A stretch of 64,000 nucleotides of DNA from Micromonospora sp. DSM 45708 (lineage in GTDB: Bacteria > Actinomycetota > Actinomycetes > Mycobacteriales > Micromonosporaceae), in assembly GCF_039566955.1 (NCBI RefSeq), contig NZ_CP154796.1, positions 2,914,001-2,978,000 on the forward strand. Reading direction: 5' to 3'. A model generated the notes under the pieces. The model had not been told where the DNA came from, searched no databases, and worked only from the letters and a program-made list of their open reading frames with translations. Shown here one piece after another: positions 7,332-49,523 of the stretch. The translations under genes were made by a program, and so were the position numbers. The stretch's first letter is position 1. Each line of letters begins with the position of its first letter.

Positions 7332-8171
7332 TCAGGCCGGCACGCCGTCCAACACGCGCAACAGCCGGTCCAGCGCCGGACGGCAACCCACCAGCCGGAT
7401 GCCGGCGCGGCTGACCCGGCCGGCCCGCGACAGCTCGGAGGCGGCGCCGGCGTCGGCGAAGCTCAGCTCCGTCAGGTCCAGCACCGGGGCCGGGCCGGCC
7501 CCGGACGTCAGCTCACCCAGCAACGCGACGAACGCGTCGCGGTTGCTGCGGTCCACCTGTCCCACCAGCCGTAACCCGCGCGGATCACCGGTGCGGTACG
7601 CGCGCAGCAGCGGCGACCAGGTGCGCGGGGTGTGCGGACCGGCGGTGCCCGGGTGGGCCGCGGTGAGCAGTCGGAGCTGCTCGGCGGGGAAGCGTCGGCG
7701 GTCGTACAGACACAGGCCGGCGATCCGACCCTCGGGGAAGAGCGGGGCGAGCGCCTGCTCGTAGCGTCGCAGATCGTCCAGGCTGACGCCGGACCGCAGC
7801 ACCCACGCCATGTCGCCGCTGAGGCGTACCCCCGGGTAGCCCTCGCGTCGGGCCCGGTCGACCTCGCGGCGGACCGTCTCGGCCAGGGCGGTCGGGGTGG
7901 CTCGCCCGTCGACCGGGAACGCGTCCACGGCGGGCAGGATCCGTAGCTGCCCCGCGGCCACGGCGGCCTCGGTGGGGACCCCGACGGCGTCGACCCGGAG
8001 GCGGACCGCCTGCGGGGTCGACGTCTCGGTGAAGCAGATCACCTTGTGGCCGCTGCGGAGACCGGTGGCGGCGAAGCGGGCGACGGCATCCAGCGCGTCG
8101 GTGTCGTCGTCGTGGATCCAGCAGACGTGATCGCCCAGATCGACCTGGTCGACCACGGTCGTAGCAGTCAC
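7332..8171 (-). CDS. MEDS (DcmR sensory) domain protein with C-terminal STAS-like domain
   Basis: A 279-residue signalling protein. The N-terminal part (GDHVCWIHDDDTD onward, to about residue 185) matches the MEDS/DcmR sensory domain, a RecA-like ligand-sensing module. The last roughly 85 residues resemble a STAS domain of anti-sigma factor antagonists (LRLVGQVDRSNRD ... LDLTELSFADAGAA). Such fusions are common in actinobacteria and are thought to couple sensing to sigma-factor partner switching. No anti-sigma kinase lies next to it. I chose the GTG at 8171; the frame stays open further upstream, where the sequence looks non-coding. Confidence 0.75.
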   Translation of the reverse strand: MTATTVVDQVDLGDHVCWIHDDDTDALDAVARFAATGLRSGHKVICFTETSTPQAVRLRVDAVGVPTEAAVAAGQLRILPAVDAFPVDGRATPTALAETVRREVDRARREGYPGVRLSGDMAWVLRSGVSLDDLRRYEQALAPLFPEGRIAGLCLYDRRRFPAEQLRLLTAAHPGTAGPHTPRTWSPLLRAYRTGDPRGLRLVGQVDRSNRDAFVALLGELTSGAGPAPVLDLTELSFADAGAASELSRAGRVSRAGIRLVGCRPALDRLLRVLDGVPA

Positions 8172-8246
8172 GGTGCGGGCCTTCCCGGTGCGGCGGCTGC
8201 CCTTCACTCTAACGAAGCGTCGTGCGCGACCGCACCGGTGATCCGC

Positions 8247-8275
8247 TTGCCCACCGGGGCGGGCCGGGTTAGCCT
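8247..8275 (+). promoter_or_regulatory. Predicted sigma-70-type promoter for the Rho-like gene
   Basis: TTGCCC (8247-8252), a 17-base spacer and TAGCCT (8270-8275) fit the actinobacterial housekeeping promoter pattern. It implies a start near 8282 and a leader of about 205 nt before the Rho-like gene. Confidence 0.5.
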
Positions 8276-8281
8276 GCTCGT

Positions 8282-8487
8282 GGACCCCGGATGCCGGCGC
8301 CATGCGCCGCCCGCCGTCCGACGATTCCCCTGTGGCCGGTCGCTGACCGTCCTCTCCGCCTCTTGGCCCTCCGCCGACCGGCCTCTCCGCCGCGGCGACA
8401 CCCCGGCCCCCGCGCCGGGCCGTCCCCGACCGCGGCCCTTCCCCGGTGTCCGCGTCCGCCGACACCGCTCTCGACGAAAGGCCACCC
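8282..8487 (+). other. C-rich untranslated leader of the Rho-like gene
   Basis: This stretch upstream of the Rho-like gene is visibly C/T-rich on the sense strand with few G, most clearly at 8325-8400 with repeated CTC, TCC and CCG. C-rich, G-poor RNA is the known loading signal (rut) for Rho. I find no convincing gene in it. It could allow autogenous termination, as known for the E. coli rho leader; this is inference. Confidence 0.4.
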
Positions 8488-9606
8488 ATGCCCCCCACGC
8501 ACCGTCCCGTCAGCGGTGTCCTCGACACCGTCGGTGGGCACCACACGCTCCGGGTGGACGGATACCTGCCGTCCACCGCCGACGTCCACGTCAGCGCCGG
8601 TCAGGTCCGCCGGTACGGCCTGCGCCGCGGCGACCTGATCACCGGCGGGGTCACCGGCGACTCCCGCCCGGGTCGGCCGGTCCCGCTGGACCGGCTGGAC
8701 ACCGTCAACGGCCTCGTCGCCGACCAGGCCCGGCGGCGTCGCGACTTCCACCAGCTCACCCCCGTGCACCCGCGCGAGCGGCTGCGGCTGGAGACCGAGC
8801 CGCACGTGTTGACCACCCGGGTCATCGACCTGGTCATGCCGATCGGCAAGGGCCAGCGGGCGTTGGTCGTGTCACCGCCGAAAGCCGGCAAGACGATGGT
8901 CCTGCAGGCGAGCGCGAACGCGATCACCGTCAACCATCCCGACTGCCACCTGATGGTGGTGCTGGTGGACGAGCGGCCCGAAGAGGTCACCGACATGTCC
9001 CGGTCGATCAAGGGCGAGGTCGTCGCGGCCACGTTCGACCGTCCGCCCCGGGACCACACCGCGGTGGCGGAGCTGGCGATCGAGCGGGCGAAGCGCCTGG
9101 TCGAGCTGGGACACGACGTGGTCGTGCTGCTCGACTCGCTGACCCGGCTCGGCCGCGCCTACAACCTCACCGTCCGCTCCGCCGGGCGTACGCTCTCCGG
9201 CGGCATCGACGTGGCCGCGCTCACTCCGCCCAAACAGCTGCTCGCGGCGGCCCGCGCGGTCGAGGAGGGCGGCTCGCTGACCATCCTGGCCTCCGCGCTG
9301 GTGGAGACCGGCTCCGCCGCCGACACCCTCATCTTCGAGGAGTTCAAGAGCACCGGCAACGCGGAGCTGAAACTGGACCGGGGGCTCGCCGACCGCCGTA
9401 CGTTCCCGGCCGTCGACGTGCGCGCCTCCGGCACCCGGCGGGAGGAGGCGCTGCTGTCCGACCCGGATCGGCAACGCCTGCGCGCGTTGCGGTCCGCGTT
9501 GTCCACACTGGACCGGCAGGCCGCCCTGGAACACCTGCTGCGCCAGCTCGGCACCACCGGCGGCAACGCGCACCTGCTCGCCCGCCTCGGCGCGGCCGGC
9601 CGGTAG
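8488..9606 (+). CDS. Compact transcription termination factor Rho paralogue
   Basis: A 372-residue RNA-dependent ATPase of the Rho family. An OB-fold-like primary RNA-binding region (residues about 8-60) is followed by the RecA-type motor: Walker A PPKAGKT ending at Lys135/Thr136, Walker B with DSLTRLGRAYN, and the R-loop region EEFKSTGNAEL. It lacks the N-terminal helical bundle of E. coli Rho (419 residues) and the long basic N-terminal insertion usual in actinobacterial Rho. It is thus likely a second, short Rho rather than the main one. The ATG at 8488 has a GAAAGG six bases upstream; an in-frame ATG at 8446 is possible. The role is unknown and could be autoregulated or stress-specific termination. 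Confidence 0.85.
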   Translation: MPPTHRPVSGVLDTVGGHHTLRVDGYLPSTADVHVSAGQVRRYGLRRGDLITGGVTGDSRPGRPVPLDRLDTVNGLVADQARRRRDFHQLTPVHPRERLRLETEPHVLTTRVIDLVMPIGKGQRALVVSPPKAGKTMVLQASANAITVNHPDCHLMVVLVDERPEEVTDMSRSIKGEVVAATFDRPPRDHTAVAELAIERAKRLVELGHDVVVLLDSLTRLGRAYNLTVRSAGRTLSGGIDVAALTPPKQLLAAARAVEEGGSLTILASALVETGSAADTLIFEEFKSTGNAELKLDRGLADRRTFPAVDVRASGTRREEALLSDPDRQRLRALRSALSTLDRQAALEHLLRQLGTTGGNAHLLARLGAAGR

Positions 9607-9650
9607 CCGCACGTCGCGGAAACCCCCTCGCCCCTCGGGCCCGTCCCGGC

Positions 9651-9656
9651 GATACT
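9651..9656 (+). promoter_or_regulatory. -10 element of a leaderless-type promoter (DUF3626 gene)
   Basis: GATACT ends seven bases before the ATG at 9664, and no Shine-Dalgarno box is present, as expected for a leaderless transcript. No clear -35 is seen. Confidence 0.45.
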
Positions 9657-9663
9657 CGCCGGC

Positions 9664-10749
9664 ATGCCCGGACCGACCCTGACCGCCGCGCAGTCCGCCG
9701 CCCTGCGACACGTGTGCGACATCGCGCTGCGCGACCGTCCGGCCGCGCTCGCCGTGATCGCGGAACACCTCGCCGGCTCCGGGGCCACCGTCCGCTGCGA
9801 CGAGGTCGGCGCGGCCGTGACCGGGTACGGCCGGCTGACCGTCAACTTCCACCCCGACCGGCTGCTGCCCGACGGTCGCACCGTGGTCGAGGCGCTCGAC
9901 GCCGAGGGCGTGTACCGCAGCCAGTTCGAGACCGGCGTCGGCAACGGCGGACTGACCGCGTTCCCCGGCGGCGACCGGGACATCTGGGAGAAGGCGATGT
10001 TCGGCGGCGCGTACCAACGTCCGGGCGTGTCCGCCGCCCAGCGCCCGAAGTACGGCGGCCTCAACCTGCTCGAGCATCCCGACGGCGCCTGCCCCCGGTT
10101 CGGCTCCTGCCACCTGCGGCTGCGTCCGGAGGTGCTGGCCCGGACCACGTTCACCTTCGGTGACAGCCACCTCGGGCCGACCGAGGTCGGCACCGCCACC
10201 GTCTTCGAGCCGGTCCTCGCCGCGTTGCTCGTCGCCACCGCCGGCACCGGCGTGAGCCTGGGCGTGTCCGGGATGGACACCGCCACGCTGCTGCGGACGC
10301 TGCTGTCCCGCCGGGAACGGGCGTCCGAGCGGGCCGGCCGCGCCCTGGACGACTACGTCGAGGCGCAGCTGCACGGCGAGCTGCGTCTCGCCCGCGACGT
10401 CGAGGCCCTCGTGGTCGACCCGTCGTTCCGCGACACCGACGCCGGCCGCCGCCTCGCCGGGCTCGCCGGCCGGTACGGGTTCCCGCTGCGCTGGCATCCC
10501 GGCTTCCAGCTATCCGTCGACGGCGTCGATGCCGATTTTCGCGGACCGGACATCCCGCCGCTGGCCGTCCGTGTGCACGCCGAGTTCGGCCGGCCGGGGG
10601 AGCCGCTGCACGCCGCCCTGATCGGCCGCGCCGCCGCCTCCCTGGTACGCGAGCCGCACCGCTGGGCCGACCGCGGGCCGGCGGAGCTGACCCGGCAGCA
10701 CCTCAAGCAGCTCTGGCACGTCCTGGTCCGCTCCGGCCAGCCGGCCTGA
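9664..10749 (+). CDS. DUF3626 domain protein
   Basis: A 361-residue protein matching the DUF3626 family along its length, with conserved segments such as TVNFHPDR, YRSQFETGVGNGG, YGGLNLL and TFTFGDSHLGP. No signal peptide or membrane segment is visible, so it is probably cytoplasmic. The function of the family is not established. The many conserved His, Asp and Glu residues would suit a metal-dependent or ADP-ribosylating enzyme, but that is speculation. It follows the Rho-like gene in the same direction with a 57-base gap and its own leaderless-type -10. Confidence 0.72.
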   Translation: MPGPTLTAAQSAALRHVCDIALRDRPAALAVIAEHLAGSGATVRCDEVGAAVTGYGRLTVNFHPDRLLPDGRTVVEALDAEGVYRSQFETGVGNGGLTAFPGGDRDIWEKAMFGGAYQRPGVSAAQRPKYGGLNLLEHPDGACPRFGSCHLRLRPEVLARTTFTFGDSHLGPTEVGTATVFEPVLAALLVATAGTGVSLGVSGMDTATLLRTLLSRRERASERAGRALDDYVEAQLHGELRLARDVEALVVDPSFRDTDAGRRLAGLAGRYGFPLRWHPGFQLSVDGVDADFRGPDIPPLAVRVHAEFGRPGEPLHAALIGRAAASLVREPHRWADRGPAELTRQHLKQLWHVLVRSGQPA

Positions 10750-21808: not shown

Positions 21809-22459
21809 TCAGCGGGGCCAGACGGACATCCGGCGGCGCACCTCGGCGATGCGGGCCGCGTCCAGGCCGTAGCGGGTGAACCGGCGGTCGGTCAGCCCGT
21901 CGAGGTAGCGGCCGGCCGCCCGGACGTCCTCCTCCTCCAGTGCCGGGTCCACCTGGCGGGCCAGCTCCAGCAGCTCGGCCACCGCGTACCGGTCCAGCGC
22001 GGCGGCGACGTCGATGTAGTCGCGGACCTCCCGGCGGTTGACCAGCGCGGCGGTCTTGTTGGCGAGCAGATCCCGGACGTCCATCACCGGGCCGAAGTCC
22101 ATCACCACCGGGCTGCGGTGCCGGTCCAACCGGGCCAGGCTGAGCCGGATCCGCCGGTCGCCGCGGCTCACCACGAAGTCCCGCAGGTCGCGGTCGAAGC
22201 CGTCGAACACCTCGCCCAGGCCGCCCGGGTCCGCGTCGTCGACCCGGTAGCCGGCCCGTTCCAGCGCGGCGCGTACGTCGGCCGCCGCCGCCGCGGCGGC
22301 GCCCTCCACGTCGGCGAACAGGTCGACGTCCTCGGTCGGGCGGGTGACCAGACCGTGCGCTGCCCAGGCCACGCCGCCGCCGAGCACGAAGCGGTGCGGG
22401 CCGGCGGCGGCGAGCGCCACCCGGGCCACCTCCCGGTAGAAGTCGTGCGGGTGCGTCAC
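21809..22459 (-). CDS. AbiEii/AbiGii-family nucleotidyltransferase (toxin-like)
   Basis: A 216-residue nucleotidyltransferase of the AbiEii/AbiGii family, whose studied members are toxins of type IV toxin-antitoxin or abortive-infection systems. The active-site motif is visible as LGGGVAWAAHGLVTRPTEDVD, with G-G and D-x-D at residues about 24-45, followed by the family motif DLLANKTAALVNRREVRDYID containing the conserved Lys and Asp. Its GTG overlaps the stop of the upstream 108-residue gene (GTGA), so the two are co-translated as a module. Confidence 0.8.
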   Translation of the reverse strand: MTHPHDFYREVARVALAAAGPHRFVLGGGVAWAAHGLVTRPTEDVDLFADVEGAAAAAAADVRAALERAGYRVDDADPGGLGEVFDGFDRDLRDFVVSRGDRRIRLSLARLDRHRSPVVMDFGPVMDVRDLLANKTAALVNRREVRDYIDVAAALDRYAVAELLELARQVDPALEEEDVRAAGRYLDGLTDRRFTRYGLDAARIAEVRRRMSVWPR

Positions 22460-22782
22460 GCGGTACGCAGACTCCGGTGCCGGCCCTCCCAGGCCAGGCG
22501 GACGCCCCGGGGCAGGTTGAGCAGCGGCCACACCCGGCGCAGCGTCCCCGCGTGGATCAACTCCCGCAGGTCCTCCACCCGGCTGGTCTCGCGCAGCACG
22601 TTCTCGTACATCCAGAGCAGCTCGTCGGGGTCGGCGAGGTCGAAGGCGCGCTCGCTGTTCCACATCAGGCGCACCGGCAGCTCGACGATGCCGACGGTAG
22701 GCCCGGCCAGCTCGTCCAGCGTGCGCGCGACCACGGCGGGACGCCCGGGACGGGCGAGATACGCGCTGGCGGCGGCCGACAT
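22456..22782 (-). CDS. Small partner of the AbiEii-like protein (possible antitoxin)
   Basis: A 108-residue protein, acidic in the middle and basic at the C-terminus (PLLNLPRGVRLAWEGRH), coupled by a four-base overlap to the AbiEii-like gene. It does not look like the winged-helix AbiEi antitoxin usually seen with AbiEii and matches no family I recognise. The ATG at 22782 lacks a usable Shine-Dalgarno box but sits six bases after a TACCCT element, so it is probably leaderless. By position it would be the antitoxin or an accessory protein; that is inference. Confidence 0.65.
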   Translation of the reverse strand: MSAAASAYLARPGRPAVVARTLDELAGPTVGIVELPVRLMWNSERAFDLADPDELLWMYENVLRETSRVEDLRELIHAGTLRRVWPLLNLPRGVRLAWEGRHRSLRTA

Positions 22783-22788
22783 GGCCTC

Positions 22789-22794
22789 AGGGTA
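22789..22794 (-). promoter_or_regulatory. -10 element of a leaderless-type promoter (AbiEii-like pair)
   Basis: On the minus strand TACCCT ends six bases before the ATG at 22782, the spacing expected of a leaderless transcript. Confidence 0.45.
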
Positions 22795-22869
22795 ACCCGT
22801 GCCCGGCCTTCCGGGCGCCATCGTCGGTGACCGGCGTCACGACGACCGGCGGAAGAAGGACCTCCCCGG

Positions 22870-23112: not shown

Positions 23113-26100
23113 GTGGGTCTGAAGACGTTCATCCAGGGCTGGCCGGTCTACCGGCAACTCACCGGCACCGACCCGCTGGGGCGCGGCGTCGCCGCCCGCT
23201 CGGCGCGGTCCGCCGAGCTGACCGCCCGCACCGAGACCGCCGACGGCATGGCCCGCTCGGTCTGCCCCTACTGCGCGGTCGGCTGCGGGCAGCGCGTCTT
23301 CCACGCCGACGGCCGGGTCACCCAGATCGAGGGCGACCCGGACAGCCCGATCTCCCGCGGCCGGCTCTGCCCGAAGGGCTCCGCCAGCAAGAGCCTGGTG
23401 ACCAGTCCGCTGCGTCAGACCACGGTCCGCTACCGCCGGCCGTACGCGACGGAGTGGGAGGATCTGGACCTCGACGTCGCGCTCGACATGATCGCCGACC
23501 GGATCCTCGCCGCCCGCGACGAGACCTGGGAGGACGTCGACGACGCCGGTCGTCCGCTCAACCGGACGCTGGGCATCTCCAGCCTGGGCGGCGCGACGCT
23601 GGACAACGAGGAGAACTACCTCATCAAGAAGCTGTTCACGGCGATGGGGGCACTCCAGATCGAGAACCAGGCGCGCATTTGACACTCCGCCACCGTCCCC
23701 GGTCTGGGGACCAGCTTCGGTCGCGGCGGCGCGACGGACTTCCAGCAGGACCTCGCCAACGCTGACGTCATCGTCATCCAGGGCTCGAACATGGCCGAGG
23801 CCCACCCGGTGGGCTTCCAGTGGGTGATGGAGGCGAAGAAGCGCGGCGCGAAGGTCTTCCACGTGGACCCGCGGTTCACCCGCACCAGCGCGCTCGCCGA
23901 CACGTACCTGCCGATCCGGGCGGGCACCGACATCGCGCTGCTCGGCGGCGTGGTGCGGTACATCCTGGACAACGAGCTGGACTTCCGGGAGTACGTGCTG
24001 GCGTACACCAACGCGGCGACCATCGTCAGCGAGCAGTTCGCCGACACCGAGGACCTGGACGGTCTCTTCTCCGGCTACAACCCGGAGACCGGCTCCTACG
24101 ACCACGTCAGCTGGCAGTACGAGGGGCAGGAGGAGCACACCAAGGTCCGGGGCACCGGCAAGGAGCGTGACTCGGCCTCCGGGCTGGAGCACGAGTCGCA
24201 CGGCGAGCCGGTGCCGGCGCAGACCCGGCGGGACGAGACGTTGCGGCATCCGCGCTGCGTCTACCAGATCCTCAAGCGGCACTTCGCCCGCTACACCCCG
24301 GAGATGGTGGCCCGGGTCTGCGGCATTCCGGAGGAGAAGTTCCTGGAGCTGGCCCGCGCCTGGACGGAGAACTCCGGCCGGGAGCGCACCGGCGCGCTCG
24401 TCTACTCGGTCGGGTGGACGCAGCACAGCGTCGGCGTGCAGTACATCCGCACCGGGTCGATCATCCAGACGCTGCTGGGCAACATGGGCCGGCCGGGCGG
24501 CGGCATCCTGGCGCTGCGCGGGCACGCCAGCATCCAGGGCTCCACCGACATCCCGACGTTGTTCAACCTGCTGCCCGGCTACCTGCCGATGCCGCACCAC
24601 GCCGACCACCCGACGTTCGACAAGTGGGTGGACAGCATCCGGCACCCCGGCCAGAAGGGTTTCTGGGGCAACTCGGGCGCGTTCGCGGCCAGCCTGCTCA
24701 AGGCGTACTGGGGTGACGCGGCCACGCCGGAAAACGACTTCTGCTACGGCTACCTGCCCCGGATGACCGGCGACCACGGGACGTACCAGCAGGTCCTCAA
24801 CATGATCGACGGGCACGTGAAGGGCTACTTCCTGCTCGGCCAGAACCCGGCGGTCGGCTCCGCGCACGGCCGGGCCCAGCGCCTCGGCATGGCCAACCTC
24901 GACTGGCTGGTGGTCCGCGACCTGTTCCTGATCGAGAGCGCCACGTTCTGGAAGAACAGCCCGGAGATCGCCACCGGGGAGATCGTGCCGGAGGAGTGCC
25001 GCACCGAGGTGTTCTTCCTGCCGGCGGCCTCGCACGTGGAGAAGGAGGGCACCTTCACCCAGACCCAGCGGCTGTTGCAGTGGCGGGAGAAGGCCGTCAA
25101 CCCGCCCGGCGACGCCCGCTCCGAGCTGTGGTTCTTCTACCACCTCGGCCGGGTGCTGCGGGAGAAGCTGGCCGGCTCCACCACGCCCCGCGACCGCGCG
25201 CTGCTGGATCTGACCTGGGACTATCCGACGCACGGCGTGCACGCCGAGCCGAGCGCCGAGGCGGTGCTCAGGGAGATCAACGGCTACGACGTCGCGACCG
25301 GCCGTCCGCTGAACGCGTTCGCCGAGGCGAAGGACGACGGCTCCACCGCGATCGGCTGCTGGATCTACACCGGCGTCTACGCCGACGGGGTGAACCAGGC
25401 GGCCCGCCGCATCTCCCGGCACGAGCAGGACTGGGTGGCCGCCGAGTGGGGCTGGGCCTGGCCGGCGAACCGGCGCACGCTCTACAACCGCGCGTCCGCC
25501 GACCCGGAGGGCCGGCCGTGGAGCGACCGCAAGAAGTACGTCTGGTGGGACCCGGACGCCGGCGAGTGGACCGGCTACGACGTGCCGGACTTCGAGAAGA
25601 CCAAACCGCCGTCGTACCGGCCGCCGGACGACGCCTCCGGCCCGGAGGCGCTCGCCGGTGACGATCCGTTCGTCATGCAGGGCGACGGCAAGGCCTGGCT
25701 GTACGCGCCGAGCGGCGTCCTCGACGGCCCGCTGCCGACGCACTACGAGCCGGCCGAGTCGCCGATGCGCAACCCGCTCTACGGGCAGCAGGCCAACCCG
25801 ACCCGCAAGATCTACGAGCACCCGGTGAACCGGATCAACCCGAGCCCCCCGGAGCCACACAGCGAGGTCTTCCCGTACGTGTTCACGGTCAGCCGGCTCA
25901 CCGAGCACCACACGGCCGGCGGGATGAGCCGGACGGTGCCGCGCCTGGCCGAGCTGCAACCGGAGATGTTCGTCGAGGTGTCCCCGGAGCTGGCCGCCGA
26001 GGTCGGGCTGGCGCATCTCGGCTGGGCCCACCTGATCAGCGGGCGGGCCGCCATCGAGGCGCGGGTGCTGGTCACCGACCGGCTCACCCCGCTGCGGGTG

Positions 26101-26439
26101 GACGGGCGGATCATCCACCAGGTGTGGCTGCCCTACCACTTCGGCAGCGAGGGCCTGGTCACCGGCGACTCGGCGAACGACCTGTTCGGCATCACGCTGG
26201 ACCCGAACGTGCTCATCCAGGAGAGCAAGATCGGCACGTGTGACATCCGGCCGGGCCGGCGGCCCACCGGGCCGGCGTTGCTCGACCTGGTCGGTGACTA
26301 CCAGCGGCGGGCCGGGATGACGGCGGACCGGAAGGTGCCGATCGTGACCACCGACGTGTTGGGCGGCGAGAACGCGGCCGGCAGCACCGACGAGCAGACG
26401 CCCGAGGCCGCGGCGCGCGACGGAGAAGACCATGCCTGA
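23113..26439 (+). CDS. fdhG: Formate dehydrogenase large subunit, selenocysteine-containing (Sec at TGA 23680-23682)
   Basis: The Mo/W-bisMGD catalytic subunit that oxidises formate to CO2. It is one gene of about 1108 residues read through an in-frame TGA as selenocysteine 190. The flanking sequence (IENQARI, Sec, HSATVPGLGTSFGRGG) aligns with the active site of E. coli FdnG, including the conserved His after Sec. A [4Fe-4S] site is formed by Cys51, Cys54, Cys58 and Cys86, with the conserved Lys88. The MGD-binding domains follow (for example AEAHPVGFQW, LLGNMGRPGGG, CWIYTG, RLTEHHTAGG). The GTG start follows GGAGGGGG. Unlike FdnG there is no twin-arginine signal, so the active site may face the cytoplasm. 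It overlaps fdhH, and selC-selA-selB lie just downstream. Confidence 0.95.
23680..23718 (+). promoter_or_regulatory. SECIS element directing selenocysteine insertion
   Basis: Immediately after the TGA codon (23680-23682), exactly 18 bases precede a GGTCT apical loop closed by the 6-bp stem GTCCCC/GGGGAC (23695-23711). The well-studied E. coli fdhF SECIS has the same 18-base spacing and the same GGUCU loop, which is bound by SelB. Together with the conserved protein context this marks the TGA as selenocysteine rather than stop. Confidence 0.9.
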
Positions 26440-27478
26440 CGCCAACAGCCTGTACGGACCGCTCGACCCGGCCCCGGACGCGGGCTGGGTCGCCGCGCCG
26501 CCCCGGATGGGCTTCTTCACCGACACCAGCGTCTGCATCGGCTGCAAGGCGTGCGAGGTCGCCTGCAAGGAGTGGAACGGCGTCCCGGATTCGGGCTTCG
26601 ACCTGCTCGGCATGTCGTACGACAACACCGGCGCGTTGACCGCGAACTCGTGGCGGCACGTGGCGTTCATCGAGCAGCCCCGCCCGGCCGGGCACCGGAC
26701 GCCGCCGTTCGCGGGCGACCCCACCGGCCCGACGGCCGGCAGCCCGGCATCGGCGGCGGTGGGCGCCGGCACGGCCACCGACACCGGCACGAACCCGGGA
26801 CTGCCGGCGGGGCGCGGCGAGCCGGCGGCGCGGATGGCGGCCGGGCCGGAGTTCCTCGGCATGCCCGGGGCGCAGCCACCGGGGCGGGGCACCGGCGCGG
26901 AGAGCCGCACCGACTTCCGCTGGCTGATGATGTCCGACGTCTGCAAGCACTGCACGCACGCGGCCTGCCTGGACGTCTGCCCGACCGGTTCGCTGTTCCG
27001 CACCGAGTTCGGCACCGTCGTGGTGCAGGAGGACATCTGCAACGGCTGCGGTTACTGCATCTCCGCCTGCCCGTACGGCGTGATCGACCAGCGCAAGGAC
27101 GACGGCCGGGCGTGGAAGTGCACGCTCTGCTACGACCGGCTGGGCGCGGGCATGACGCCGGCGTGCGCGCAGGCGTGCCCCACCGAGTCCATCCAGTACG
27201 GGCCGCTCGACGAGCTGCGGGAGCGGGCCGCCGAGCGGGTCGCCACGCTGCACGAACGCGGCGTGCCGGAGGCCCGGCTCTACGGCCACGACCCGACCGA
27301 CGGGGTGGGCGGCGACGGCGCGTTCTTCCTGCTGCTCGACCAGCCGGAGGTGTACGGGCTGCCGCCGGACCCGGTGGTCACCACCCGGGACCTGCCGAAG
27401 ATGTGGAAGCGGGCCGGCCTGGCCGCGTTGGCCATGGCGGCGGCGACCGTCGCCGCGTTCGTCGGAGGATCGTCGTGA
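26432..27478 (+). CDS. fdhH: Formate dehydrogenase iron-sulfur (electron-transfer) subunit
   Basis: A 348-residue ferredoxin-like subunit that carries electrons from the catalytic subunit to the membrane partner. Four cysteine clusters are visible: Cys35-38-41-45, then CKHCTHAACLDVC, CNGCGYCISAC, and the CTLC...CAQAC set, enough for four [4Fe-4S] centres as in E. coli FdnH. A Gly/Pro/Ala-rich insertion of about 70 residues (roughly 95-160) separates the first cluster from the rest and is unusual. The C-terminus ends in a hydrophobic segment (AGLAALAMAAATVAAFVGG), like the membrane-anchoring helix of FdnH. The ATG overlaps the end of the large-subunit gene. Confidence 0.93.
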   Translation: MPDANSLYGPLDPAPDAGWVAAPPRMGFFTDTSVCIGCKACEVACKEWNGVPDSGFDLLGMSYDNTGALTANSWRHVAFIEQPRPAGHRTPPFAGDPTGPTAGSPASAAVGAGTATDTGTNPGLPAGRGEPAARMAAGPEFLGMPGAQPPGRGTGAESRTDFRWLMMSDVCKHCTHAACLDVCPTGSLFRTEFGTVVVQEDICNGCGYCISACPYGVIDQRKDDGRAWKCTLCYDRLGAGMTPACAQACPTESIQYGPLDELRERAAERVATLHERGVPEARLYGHDPTDGVGGDGAFFLLLDQPEVYGLPPDPVVTTRDLPKMWKRAGLAALAMAAATVAAFVGGSS

Positions 27479-28680
27479 ACCCGGACCGTCCGGTGGGTGC
27501 CCTGTTCCGCCGCTTCCGCGAGCGCCTGGCCGCCGAGCGGACCTCCGCCGCCGGGCCGCGGCAGGCCACCGGCGAGCGCCGCGCGCTCGTGTCGACCGGC
27601 CGCGAGAGCGACAGCCGGGCCACCGGCACCGGGCCGGGCGTCGGTCGCACCGATGCGGGCGCCCACGACGCGGGGCTGACCCCGCACCCGCCCCGCGACG
27701 CCGCGCCGACCGTCGGCCGCCGACGCGGCGGCCGGGGCGGCGAGCAGCTCAACGTGCCCCCGGCGGAGTTCACCTCCTACTACGGCCGGCCGGTCCTCAA
27801 GCCACCGGTGTGGCGGTGGGACATCGCCGCGTACCTGTTCACCGGCGGGCTCGCCGCCGGGTCCTCGCTGCTGGCCGCCGGCGGGCAGCTCACAGGCCGC
27901 CCGGCGTTGCGCCGCGGCGGCCGGGTCGCGTCGCTGGCGGCGGTGAGCGCCAGCGCGTACTTCCTCATCAACGACCTGGGCCGGCCCAGCCGGTTCCACC
28001 ACATGCTGCGGGTGGCGAAGGTGACCTCGCCGATGTCGGTGGGCACCTGGATCCTCAGCGTGTTCGGCCCGGCCGCCGGCCTGGCCGCGATCGCCGAGGG
28101 CGCGCCCCGCCTGCCGGAGCGCGGGGTGCTCGGGCTGGGCCGCCGGCTGCTGCCCCCGGCCGGGCACGCGGCCGGGCCGGTCGCCGCCGTCACCGCGCCG
28201 GCGCTGGCCACGTACACCGGGGTGCTGCTGGCCGACACGGCGGTGCCGTCGTGGCACGAGGCGTACCCGGAACTGCCGGTCATCTTCGCGGGCAGCGCGC
28301 TGGCCAGCGGCGCCGGCGTCGGGCTGCTGGCCGCGCCGCCCGCGCAGGCCGGCCCGGCGCGACGCATGGCGGTCGCCGGCGCGGCGCTGGAGCTGTGGGG
28401 CGCGCACCGGGTGGAGAACCGGCTCGGCCTGCTCAGCGAGCCCTACGCCGACGGCACGCCGGGGAAGCTGCTGCGCGCCGGCCGCGTGCTCACCGCCGCC
28501 GGGGTGGCCGGCGCGCTGGTCGGCCGCCGCAGCCGGCTGCTGTCCGCGGCCTCCGGCGGCGCGCTGCTCGCCGCCGCCGTCTGCACCCGCTTCGGCATCT
28601 TCCACGGCGGGGTCGCCTCGGCACGGGACCCGAAGTACACGGTGGTGCCGCAGCGCGAGCGCGCCGACCGGCGGGCCTGA
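27475..28680 (+). CDS. NrfD/PsrC-type membrane subunit of formate dehydrogenase
   Basis: A 401-residue integral membrane protein starting at a GTG that overlaps the stop of the Fe-S subunit gene, with GGAGG upstream. The first 90 residues are hydrophilic and low-complexity; then come about eight hydrophobic segments with NrfD-like features (PPVWRWDIAAYLFTGGLAAG, INDLGRPSRFHHML, SPMSVGTWIL, ELWGAHRVEN). NrfD-type subunits pass electrons to the quinone pool without haem, unlike the cytochrome b subunit FdnI. It completes a three-subunit membrane-bound formate:quinone oxidoreductase. Confidence 0.88.
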   Translation: MNPDRPVGALFRRFRERLAAERTSAAGPRQATGERRALVSTGRESDSRATGTGPGVGRTDAGAHDAGLTPHPPRDAAPTVGRRRGGRGGEQLNVPPAEFTSYYGRPVLKPPVWRWDIAAYLFTGGLAAGSSLLAAGGQLTGRPALRRGGRVASLAAVSASAYFLINDLGRPSRFHHMLRVAKVTSPMSVGTWILSVFGPAAGLAAIAEGAPRLPERGVLGLGRRLLPPAGHAAGPVAAVTAPALATYTGVLLADTAVPSWHEAYPELPVIFAGSALASGAGVGLLAAPPAQAGPARRMAVAGAALELWGAHRVENRLGLLSEPYADGTPGKLLRAGRVLTAAGVAGALVGRRSRLLSAASGGALLAAAVCTRFGIFHGGVASARDPKYTVVPQRERADRRA

Positions 28681-28725: not shown

Positions 28726-28821
28726 GGAGGCGTTCAGGCGGCTGGTGCCCCTCCCGGTCTTCAAAACCGGTGTGGTCCGGGATCCGGGCCAGGCGGGTTC
28801 GATTCCCGTCCGTCTCCGCCA
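28726..28821 (+). tRNA. selC: tRNA-Sec (anticodon TCA)
   Basis: A 96-base gene for the selenocysteine tRNA. The anticodon TCA at 28761-28763 sits in loop CTTCAAA closed by CCGGT/ACCGG. A very long variable arm (GGTCCGG-GAT-CCGGGCC), the T-arm GCGGGTTCGATTCCCGT, a long acceptor stem (GGAGGCG pairing with the strand before GCCA) and an encoded CCA end are all visible. The eighth acceptor pair appears mismatched. It lies between the formate dehydrogenase genes and selA, so the decoding tRNA travels with its target gene. Confidence 0.95.
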
Positions 28822-28842: not shown

Positions 28843-30135
<1,293 letters not shown>

Positions 30136-48683: not shown

Positions 48684-49523
48684 GTGAGTGAGGCGTTCGA
48701 GGTGTTGGCCGGGCTGGTGGCCGGCGGGGGTGTGGTGGTGCTCAGCGGCGCCGGCTTGTCCACCGAGTCGGGCATTCCGGACTATCGGGGGCCCAGTGGC
48801 GCGGCGCGCCGGCACACCCCGATGACCTACCAGGCGTTCACCCGGGACCCGGCGGCGCGGCGGCGCTACTGGGCGCGCAGCCACCTGGGGTGGCGGACCA
48901 TCGTCCGGGCGGCGCCCAACGACGGGCACCGGGCGGTGGCCCGGTTGCAGCACGCGGGGCTGCTCGGCGGCATCATCACGCAGAACGTCGACGGGCTGCA
49001 CACCGCCGCCGGCGCGACCGGTGTGATCGAGTTGCACGGCCGGCTCGACGAGGTGACGTGCCTGCACTGCGGCAACCTGACCGGCCGTGACGAGCTGCAC
49101 CGGCGGTTGACCGAGGCGAACCCGGGGTTCGACGCGCGGGTGGCGCACGTCAACCCCGACGGCGACGTGGAGCTGCCGGACGAGGCGGTGGCCGGGTTCC
49201 GGGTCGTCGATTGCGGGGTGTGCGGCGGCGGCATGCTCAAACCGGACGTGGTGTTCTTCGGCGAGACGGTGCCGGCGCCCCGGGTGGCGGACTGTTTCGC
49301 CCTGGTGCAGGAGGCCCGGGCGTTGCTGGTGCTGGGGTCGTCGTTGACGGTCATGTCGGGGCGCCGGTTCGTGTTGCGGGCGGCGAAGCTCGGCGTTCCG
49401 GTGGCGATCGTCAACCAGGGCGTCACCCGTGGTGACGGGTACGCGACGGTGCGGCTGGACGCGCCGTTGGGCGCCACGCTGACCGCGTTGGCCGCCGGGC
49501 TGGCCGAGCCGGCGCCGGTGTGA
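48684..49523 (+). CDS. Sir2-family NAD-dependent protein deacylase (sirtuin)
   Basis: A 279-residue sirtuin that removes acyl groups from lysines using NAD. The GAGLSTESGIPDYRG motif (NAD binding) is near residue 22, the catalytic His is in ELHG, TQNVDGLH is present, and the zinc site is two C-x2-C pairs (CLHC and CGVC). GSS near residue 224 and the VNQG segment complete the fold. The GTG at 48684 is the likely start. In actinobacteria sirtuins control acyl-CoA synthetases, among others. Confidence 0.9.
   Translation: MSEAFEVLAGLVAGGGVVVLSGAGLSTESGIPDYRGPSGAARRHTPMTYQAFTRDPAARRRYWARSHLGWRTIVRAAPNDGHRAVARLQHAGLLGGIITQNVDGLHTAAGATGVIELHGRLDEVTCLHCGNLTGRDELHRRLTEANPGFDARVAHVNPDGDVELPDEAVAGFRVVDCGVCGGGMLKPDVVFFGETVPAPRVADCFALVQEARALLVLGSSLTVMSGRRFVLRAAKLGVPVAIVNQGVTRGDGYATVRLDAPLGATLTALAAGLAEPAPV

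What the first reader, a model, noticed from the sequence alone, without database searches (positions are those of the whole stretch)
23113..26439. Formate dehydrogenase gene with an in-frame TGA read as selenocysteine
The two parts of the large subunit are separated by a single TGA exactly where E. coli FdnG carries selenocysteine, with the conserved His right after it and both sides matching the family. A SECIS hairpin follows with the same 18-base spacing and GGUCU loop as E. coli fdhF. A standard gene caller would split or truncate this gene. Selenoproteins are uncommon in this lineage.
Basis: partly seen in the sequence, partly recalled or inferred. Interest (0 to 1): 0.78.

Follow-up and report, generated by a model that had tools for sequence, protein, structure and literature searches.

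The report
Ordinary selenium-containing formate dehydrogenase operon
A soil actinobacterium reads an internal stop signal as the selenium amino acid selenocysteine to make a formate-oxidising enzyme, with the decoding genes right beside it; this is well supported, but it is common and already known in this group of bacteria.

Summary
One in-frame TGA (23680-23682, codon 190) lies where solved formate dehydrogenases carry selenocysteine. A hairpin GUCCCC-GGUCU-GGGGAC begins its loop 18 bases later. Its energy is not unusual for this GC-rich DNA (z -0.12), but comparison decides: 69 of 70 distinct relatives with TGA keep all six pairs, with changes on both sides, against 0 of 14 distinct Cys-codon relatives. 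tRNA-Sec, selA and selB follow in the same tight array; selD is elsewhere in the genome.

The claim of rarity is wrong. In this genus (Micromonospora, judged by named relatives) 138 of 151 genomes have a strong tRNA-Sec match and 141 of 151 this enzyme; SelB passes its cut-off in 176 of 296 genomes of the phylum. NCBIfam has a model that fits this protein, NF041513. The same system is described in other actinobacteria, in one case with selenium-dependent formate removal (passages). Verdict: true, ordinary, already known. The oddest by-product: four of the 151 genomes have the decoding genes but no match to this enzyme.

The parts
23113..26439 (+). fdhA: formate dehydrogenase alpha subunit, 1108 residues, GTG start, Sec at codon 190
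   Evidence: read-through translation; NF041513 1978.1 bits, cut-off 1400; TIGR01553 932.3, cut-off 814.2; Molybdopterin, Fe4S4 and dinucleotide-binding domains. The start codon is inferred.
23680..23682 (+). TGA read as selenocysteine (codon 190)
   Evidence: aligned with X in 1h0h_A and 8cm4_A; TGA in 54 of 54 genus loci
23695..23711 (+). SECIS hairpin GUCCCC-GGUCU-GGGGAC
   Evidence: fold; pair counts in Sec and Cys forms; uniqueness in the window
26432..27478 (+). fdhB: iron-sulphur (4x4Fe-4S type) beta subunit, overlaps fdhA by 8 bases
   Evidence: PF13247 84.3 bits; TIGR01582 FDH-beta 182.1 bits, below its cut-off of 334.7
27475..28680 (+). NrfD-type membrane subunit (gamma), overlaps fdhB by 4 bases
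   Evidence: PF03916 NrfD 74.8 bits, cut-off 25.8
28726..28821 (+). selC: tRNA-Sec, anticodon UCA, CCA end encoded
   Evidence: ARAGORN; RF01852 74 bits, gathering 47
28843..30135 (+). selA: selenocysteine synthase
   Evidence: TIGR00474 400.1 bits, cut-off 267.9; PF03841
30141..31904 (+). selB: selenocysteine-specific elongation factor
   Evidence: TIGR00475 268.5 bits, cut-off 242.25; SelB winged helix and beta-barrel

Best explanation
It is a selenocysteine-containing formate dehydrogenase operon of the known actinobacterial kind: fdhA (with an in-frame UGA) - fdhB - NrfD-type subunit - selC - selA - selB. Mechanism: SelD (encoded elsewhere) makes selenophosphate; SelA turns seryl-tRNA-Sec into Sec-tRNA-Sec; SelB carries it to the ribosome and binds the hairpin that starts 12 bases after the UGA, so UGA is read as Sec rather than stop; Sec is then a ligand of the molybdenum or tungsten centre that oxidises formate, and electrons leave through the Fe-S subunit to the NrfD-type membrane subunit and the quinone pool. 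Shown here: gene content, position of the TGA, conservation of the hairpin, presence of the whole decoding set. Inferred from the families: the decoding steps, metal ligation, electron route and the direction formate to CO2.
For: TGA aligned with X in solved enzymes, one named selenocysteine-containing. Family models over cut-off for fdhA, selA and selB. tRNA-Sec by two programs. SelD 381.7 bits elsewhere in the genome, itself a Cys form. All five bacterial SECIS constraints listed in the Fig. 2 legend of PMC13188914 are met: loop 5, stem 6, G in the first two loop positions, spacing 18, energy -12.9. Hairpin pairs: 69 of 70 distinct Sec sequences keep 6 of 6, including C-G to T-A (9) and C-G to G-C (4 at the closing pair, 1 at the third pair); dealing the 3' arms out at random gives a mean of 51.4 and a maximum of 58, 0 of 2000 shuffles reach 69. 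Loop positions 2-3 are GU in 70 of 70. Codon +7 is GGT or AGT in 155 of 155 distinct 120-base sequences, although GGT is 9 of the 106 Gly codons of this gene. Cys forms: 0 of 14 distinct sequences keep six pairs and 12 of 14 have lost the U of the loop. Genomes that have only no-stop forms: 7 of 8 without SelB over cut-off; genomes with both forms: 7 of 7 with SelB.
Against: No direct evidence of expression, selenium content or activity for this strain. Fold energy is not unusual (z -0.12). The pair shuffle does not correct for shared descent, and many rows come from one genus. One of 70 Sec sequences has one non-pair. G225 has SelB but only a no-stop enzyme at this threshold, and four genus genomes have the machinery without the enzyme, so the linkage is not perfect.
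Confidence: 0.97

Rival explanations
1. The TGA is a nonsense mutation or sequencing error in a Cys-type enzyme; the gene is a pseudogene or its true codon is Cys.
For: Such decay does exist in the genus: the copy of G031 (same place as L192, Micromonospora andamanensis) has a further in-frame TAG at codon 182.
Against: 54 of 54 genus loci and 80 of 80 named loci checked have TGA at this codon; both sides stay under protein-level selection (98% to 58% identity); hairpin and decoding set are conserved.
Confidence: 0.01
2. TGA terminates and the two parts act as separate polypeptides, or read-through puts in another amino acid (for example Trp or Cys).
For: An ORF from ATG 23791 exists in the mechanical list; no protein data here.
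Against: The split would fall inside the active-site region and leave out its metal ligand; the ATG at 23791 lies 36 codons after the TGA; a dedicated tRNA-Sec, SelA and SelB sit in the same array; the hairpin is lost exactly in forms with a Cys codon.
Confidence: 0.01
3. The hairpin is just the product of GC-rich codons for a conserved VPGLGT peptide and has no role.
For: Loose geometry fits 867 of 1083 TGA triplets in the window; fold z -0.12; codons are constrained by the peptide.
Against: Two-sided changes at two stem pairs, invariant GU in the loop through a codon that is rare in this gene, and breakdown in the Cys forms although these keep GLG.
Confidence: 0.02

Closest known systems
NCBIfam NF041513 (formate_DH_Act, actinobacterial formate dehydrogenase)
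   Same: 1978.1 bits over residues 6-1066, model 2-1067 of 1067, cut-off 1400
   Different: nothing found; this is a member
FDH1 of A. chiangmaiensis DSM 45062 (PMC7176365, passages read; genus name Actinomycetospora recalled)
   Same: alpha 1078, beta 362 and gamma 366 residues with SelA and SelB listed under FDH1, SelD listed without a cluster label; formate accumulated without selenium and hardly with selenite
   Different: it has an extra permease gene in the list; I did not compare sequences
fdnG region of Corynebacterium aurimucosum (PMC2830990, passages), FDH-O of Streptomyces incarnatus (PMC4498112, passages), FDH of Amycolatopsis mediterranei (PMC4048454, passages)
   Same: Sec-type formate dehydrogenase and sel genes in an actinobacterium; for the first two the papers place them in one cluster or vicinity
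   Different: the papers put selD with the cluster in the first two; here selD is far away
E. coli FdnGHI (1kqf) and fdhF SECIS
   Same: alpha and beta subunits are related; loop GGUCU and 18-base spacing (recalled)
   Different: the third subunit here is of NrfD type rather than cytochrome b (recalled for FdnI); no twin-arginine pair in the first 45 residues; the stem here is uninterrupted, without the bulged U recalled for fdhF

Membership tests
Formate dehydrogenase alpha subunit (NF041513 / TIGR01553) | score over the curated cut-off | tested here: met
   1978.1 against 1400 and 932.3 against 814.2
Selenoprotein gene | in-frame TGA at the active-site position, conserved | tested here: met
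   TGA at this codon in 80 of 80 named loci and 54 of 54 genus loci
Selenoprotein gene | bacterial SECIS by the constraints in PMC13188914 Fig. 2 legend | tested here: met
   The constraints alone are weak here: a loose geometry without the energy limit fits 867 of 1083 TGAs
Sec-decoding trait | selA, selB, selC and selD in the genome | tested here: met
Selenoprotein gene | selenium in the product | not testable with these tools
   needs 75Se labelling or mass spectrometry
Formate dehydrogenase | formate oxidation | not testable with these tools
   inferred from the family
FdnGHI type (E. coli formate dehydrogenase N) | beta subunit over the TIGR01582 cut-off | tested here: not met
   182.1 against 334.7 bits; so the complex is not filed as FdnGHI, although alpha passes TIGR01553
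FdnGHI type (E. coli formate dehydrogenase N) | Tat export signal on alpha | tested here: not met
   no RR pair in the first 45 residues; a crude test

The most novel reading that the evidence does not exclude
The hairpin may stand for a separate mode of SelB recognition in actinobacteria: an uninterrupted six-pair stem whose only fixed loop letters are G and U at positions 2-3 (70 of 70 distinct sequences), without the bulged U that I recall as needed by E. coli SelB. If so, actinobacterial SelB reads a bulge-less element.
Probability: 0.25. Interest if true: 0.35.

Novelty: already known. Interest (0 to 1): 0.12.

Why it matters
As a single locus it matters little: it is a clean, ordinary example. 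The comparison made on the way is useful, because Sec and Cys forms of one enzyme within one family show the hairpin kept with the one and lost with the other, which is better evidence for a SECIS element in GC-rich DNA than any fold energy. It also corrects the impression that selenoproteins are rare in this lineage.

Tried and rejected
A second in-frame TGA in many genus relatives ('2 TGA') looked like a double-Sec enzyme. Of the 20 regions fetched to look at this, the second stop, where the alignment reached it, lay at query position 1092 near the C terminus (L056, L058, L061, L062, L065), that is at the genes' normal end; 14 of the 20 showed only codon 190 and one (L072) an extra stop at 182. 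Rejected.

Fold energy as evidence: rejected (z -0.12). Loose SECIS geometry: rejected as uninformative.

Seven genus genomes with the enzyme but no strong tRNA-Sec (G010, G014, G023, G052, G054, G069, G094) looked like exceptions; their enzyme genes lie on short contigs or near a contig end in most cases, and I take this as assembly gaps. That is inference, not a test.

Selenoprotein of the four genomes without the enzyme: a scan for conserved TGA codons in about 20 kb around their tRNA-Sec gave only places inside the selC-selB stretch or in wrong frames of it; UGSC family and GrdB gave no match, but in both searches no control genome rang, so this does not show absence.

Papers: searches were read as listings; PMC1794560, PMC5029168, PMC5330540, PMC4498112, PMC2830990, PMC4048454 and PMC7176365 as passages; PMC13188914 as passages, section 5, and part 1 of 3 of section 7. 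For Micromonospora with selenocysteine, one search listed 8 papers, none of which concerns this enzyme by title or abstract start.

My own ARAGORN run inside one search found no tRNA-Sec in any locus because the call or its parsing was wrong; it was replaced.

Full report
OBSERVATION. The frame from GTG 23113 to TGA 26439 holds one internal TGA at codon 190, position 23680. Third-position GC is 0.952 before and 0.974 after it, so both halves look coded. The codon aligns with the residue printed X in 1h0h_A and 8cm4_A. The family models NF041513 and TIGR01553 are passed.

HAIRPIN. GUCCCC-GGUCU-GGGGAC at 23695-23711 starts its loop 18 bases after the TGA. By energy it is unremarkable: -12.9 kcal/mol for the 41 bases, z -0.12, 73 of 200 shuffles as good. 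A loose geometry without energy limit fits 867 of 1083 TGA triplets in the window. What is special is the exact element, found at 1 of 127820 positions, at this TGA, and its conservation. The last two are distant enzymes at 32-33% identity and were left out of the pair counts. The set is not random: the Cys loci were fetched on purpose from the no-stop rows, and some genomes occur more than once, so I counted distinct 45-base sequences. Of 70 Sec sequences 69 keep all six pairs; of 14 Cys sequences none does. Two stem pairs vary on both sides (C-G to T-A 9 times and to G-C once; C-G to G-C 4 times). Random re-dealing of the 3' arms reaches 58 at most in 2000 trials; this control keeps columns but not descent.

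CODON USE. The Gly codon at the loop is GGT in 147 and Ser AGT in 8 of 155 distinct 120-base sequences; the codon before the TGA is ATT in 132, ATA in 19, ATC in 3 and ATG in 1. In this gene GGT is 9 of 106 Gly codons and ATT 2 of 43 Ile codons.

DECODING GENES. The array is fdhA, fdhB (8-base overlap), NrfD-type subunit (4-base overlap), 45-base gap, tRNA-Sec, 21-base gap, selA, 5-base gap, selB, all on +. selD lies at 4862099-4863007 of the same 7,016,307-base contig and has the Cys motif GGGCACK. Of 30 named Micromonospora loci with at least 5.5 kb after the enzyme gene, 24 have selA and selB behind it, and in 24 of these 24 tRNA-Sec lies between; the other six (L191, L194, L195, L200, L202, L207) have no selA or selB match in that stretch, and in the three of them examined there is no tRNA-Sec.

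HOW COMMON. Genus sample: strong tRNA-Sec (over 60 bits) in 138 of 151 (140 are over Rfam's cut-off, two of them at 47 bits only); enzyme in 141 of 151. Of 13 genomes without strong tRNA-Sec, seven have the enzyme and six (G015, G062, G077, G083, G089, G114) have neither, and these six have no SelB over cut-off. Family sample: enzyme in 67 of 121 genomes, 73 of 87 match rows with a TGA and 14 without a stop. Phylum sample: SelB over cut-off in 176 of 296, enzyme in 100 of 296, 102 of 107 rows with a TGA. Row counts are mine; that the TGA is at codon 190 was checked only in fetched loci. So selenoproteins are not uncommon in this lineage.

SEC AND CYS FORMS. Eight genomes have only no-stop forms at this threshold: G159, G215, G225, G228, G154, G301, G502, G293; seven have no SelB over cut-off and G225 has one; G154 is 69% and G502 82% complete. 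Seven genomes have both forms (G196, G263, G206, G257, G181, G249, G170), and all seven have SelB (G170 only with neighbouring pieces added). For G154 the codon was read in one of its two pieces.

KNOWN. PMC13188914 (passages and sections) lists FdhA as the most widely distributed bacterial selenoprotein family. PMC1794560 (passages) gives FdhA in 67 of 75 Sec-using organisms and says that fdhA and the decoding genes are often in one operon. Actinobacterial cases. In A. chiangmaiensis formate removal depended on selenium and the FDH, SelA, SelB and SelD proteins were detected. I found no paper on this enzyme in Micromonospora (8 listed).

VERDICT. Confirmed, ordinary, already known. The unexplained remainder is outside the finding: four genus genomes with selC, selB and (L076) selD-selA-selB but no match to the enzyme.

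Noticed in passing
L076-L079 (G043, G073, G113, G145), around tRNA-Sec at 9368-9804: tRNA-Sec (62.7-65.2 bits), a Cys-type SelD motif and SelB (297-313 bits) but no formate dehydrogenase match at E 1e-30. In L076 the order is selC-selD-selA-selB. Machinery without a known client; genome sizes of 5.2-5.6 Mb suggest the former Salinispora (recalled guess).
   Followed up: partly
L143-L154, L156, L162: A Cys-codon paralogue of the enzyme in other genera of the family (and one of the order); in seven genomes it occurs beside the Sec form, which may allow a switch with selenium supply.
   Followed up: partly
L191, L194, L195: Second Sec-type copy of the enzyme in genomes that also have the operon copy, with no selA, selB or tRNA-Sec in the fetched stretch.
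   Followed up: partly
L080 (G118): A second tRNA-Sec (70.9 bits) with a second selB-like gene (ORF 7680-9407, minus) away from the enzyme; ARAGORN also calls a tRNA with anticodon CTA about 1 kb away, unverified.
   Followed up: no
L072 and L192: The copy in Micromonospora andamanensis has a further in-frame TAG at codon 182: decay or sequencing error.
   Followed up: no
window 49294-49391 (+): ARAGORN's tRNA-Pro of 98 bases lies in what reads like a protein-coding stretch; probably a false call.
   Followed up: partly
window 21809-22821 (-): AbiEii-type nucleotidyltransferase (PF08843, 46.8 bits) next to a small gene without a Pfam match, just upstream of the operon on the other strand; possibly a type IV toxin-antitoxin pair.
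   Followed up: no
window 27475-28680 (+): The membrane subunit is of NrfD type and alpha has no twin-arginine pair near its start, so the active site may face the cytoplasm, unlike E. coli FdnG (recalled).
   Followed up: partly
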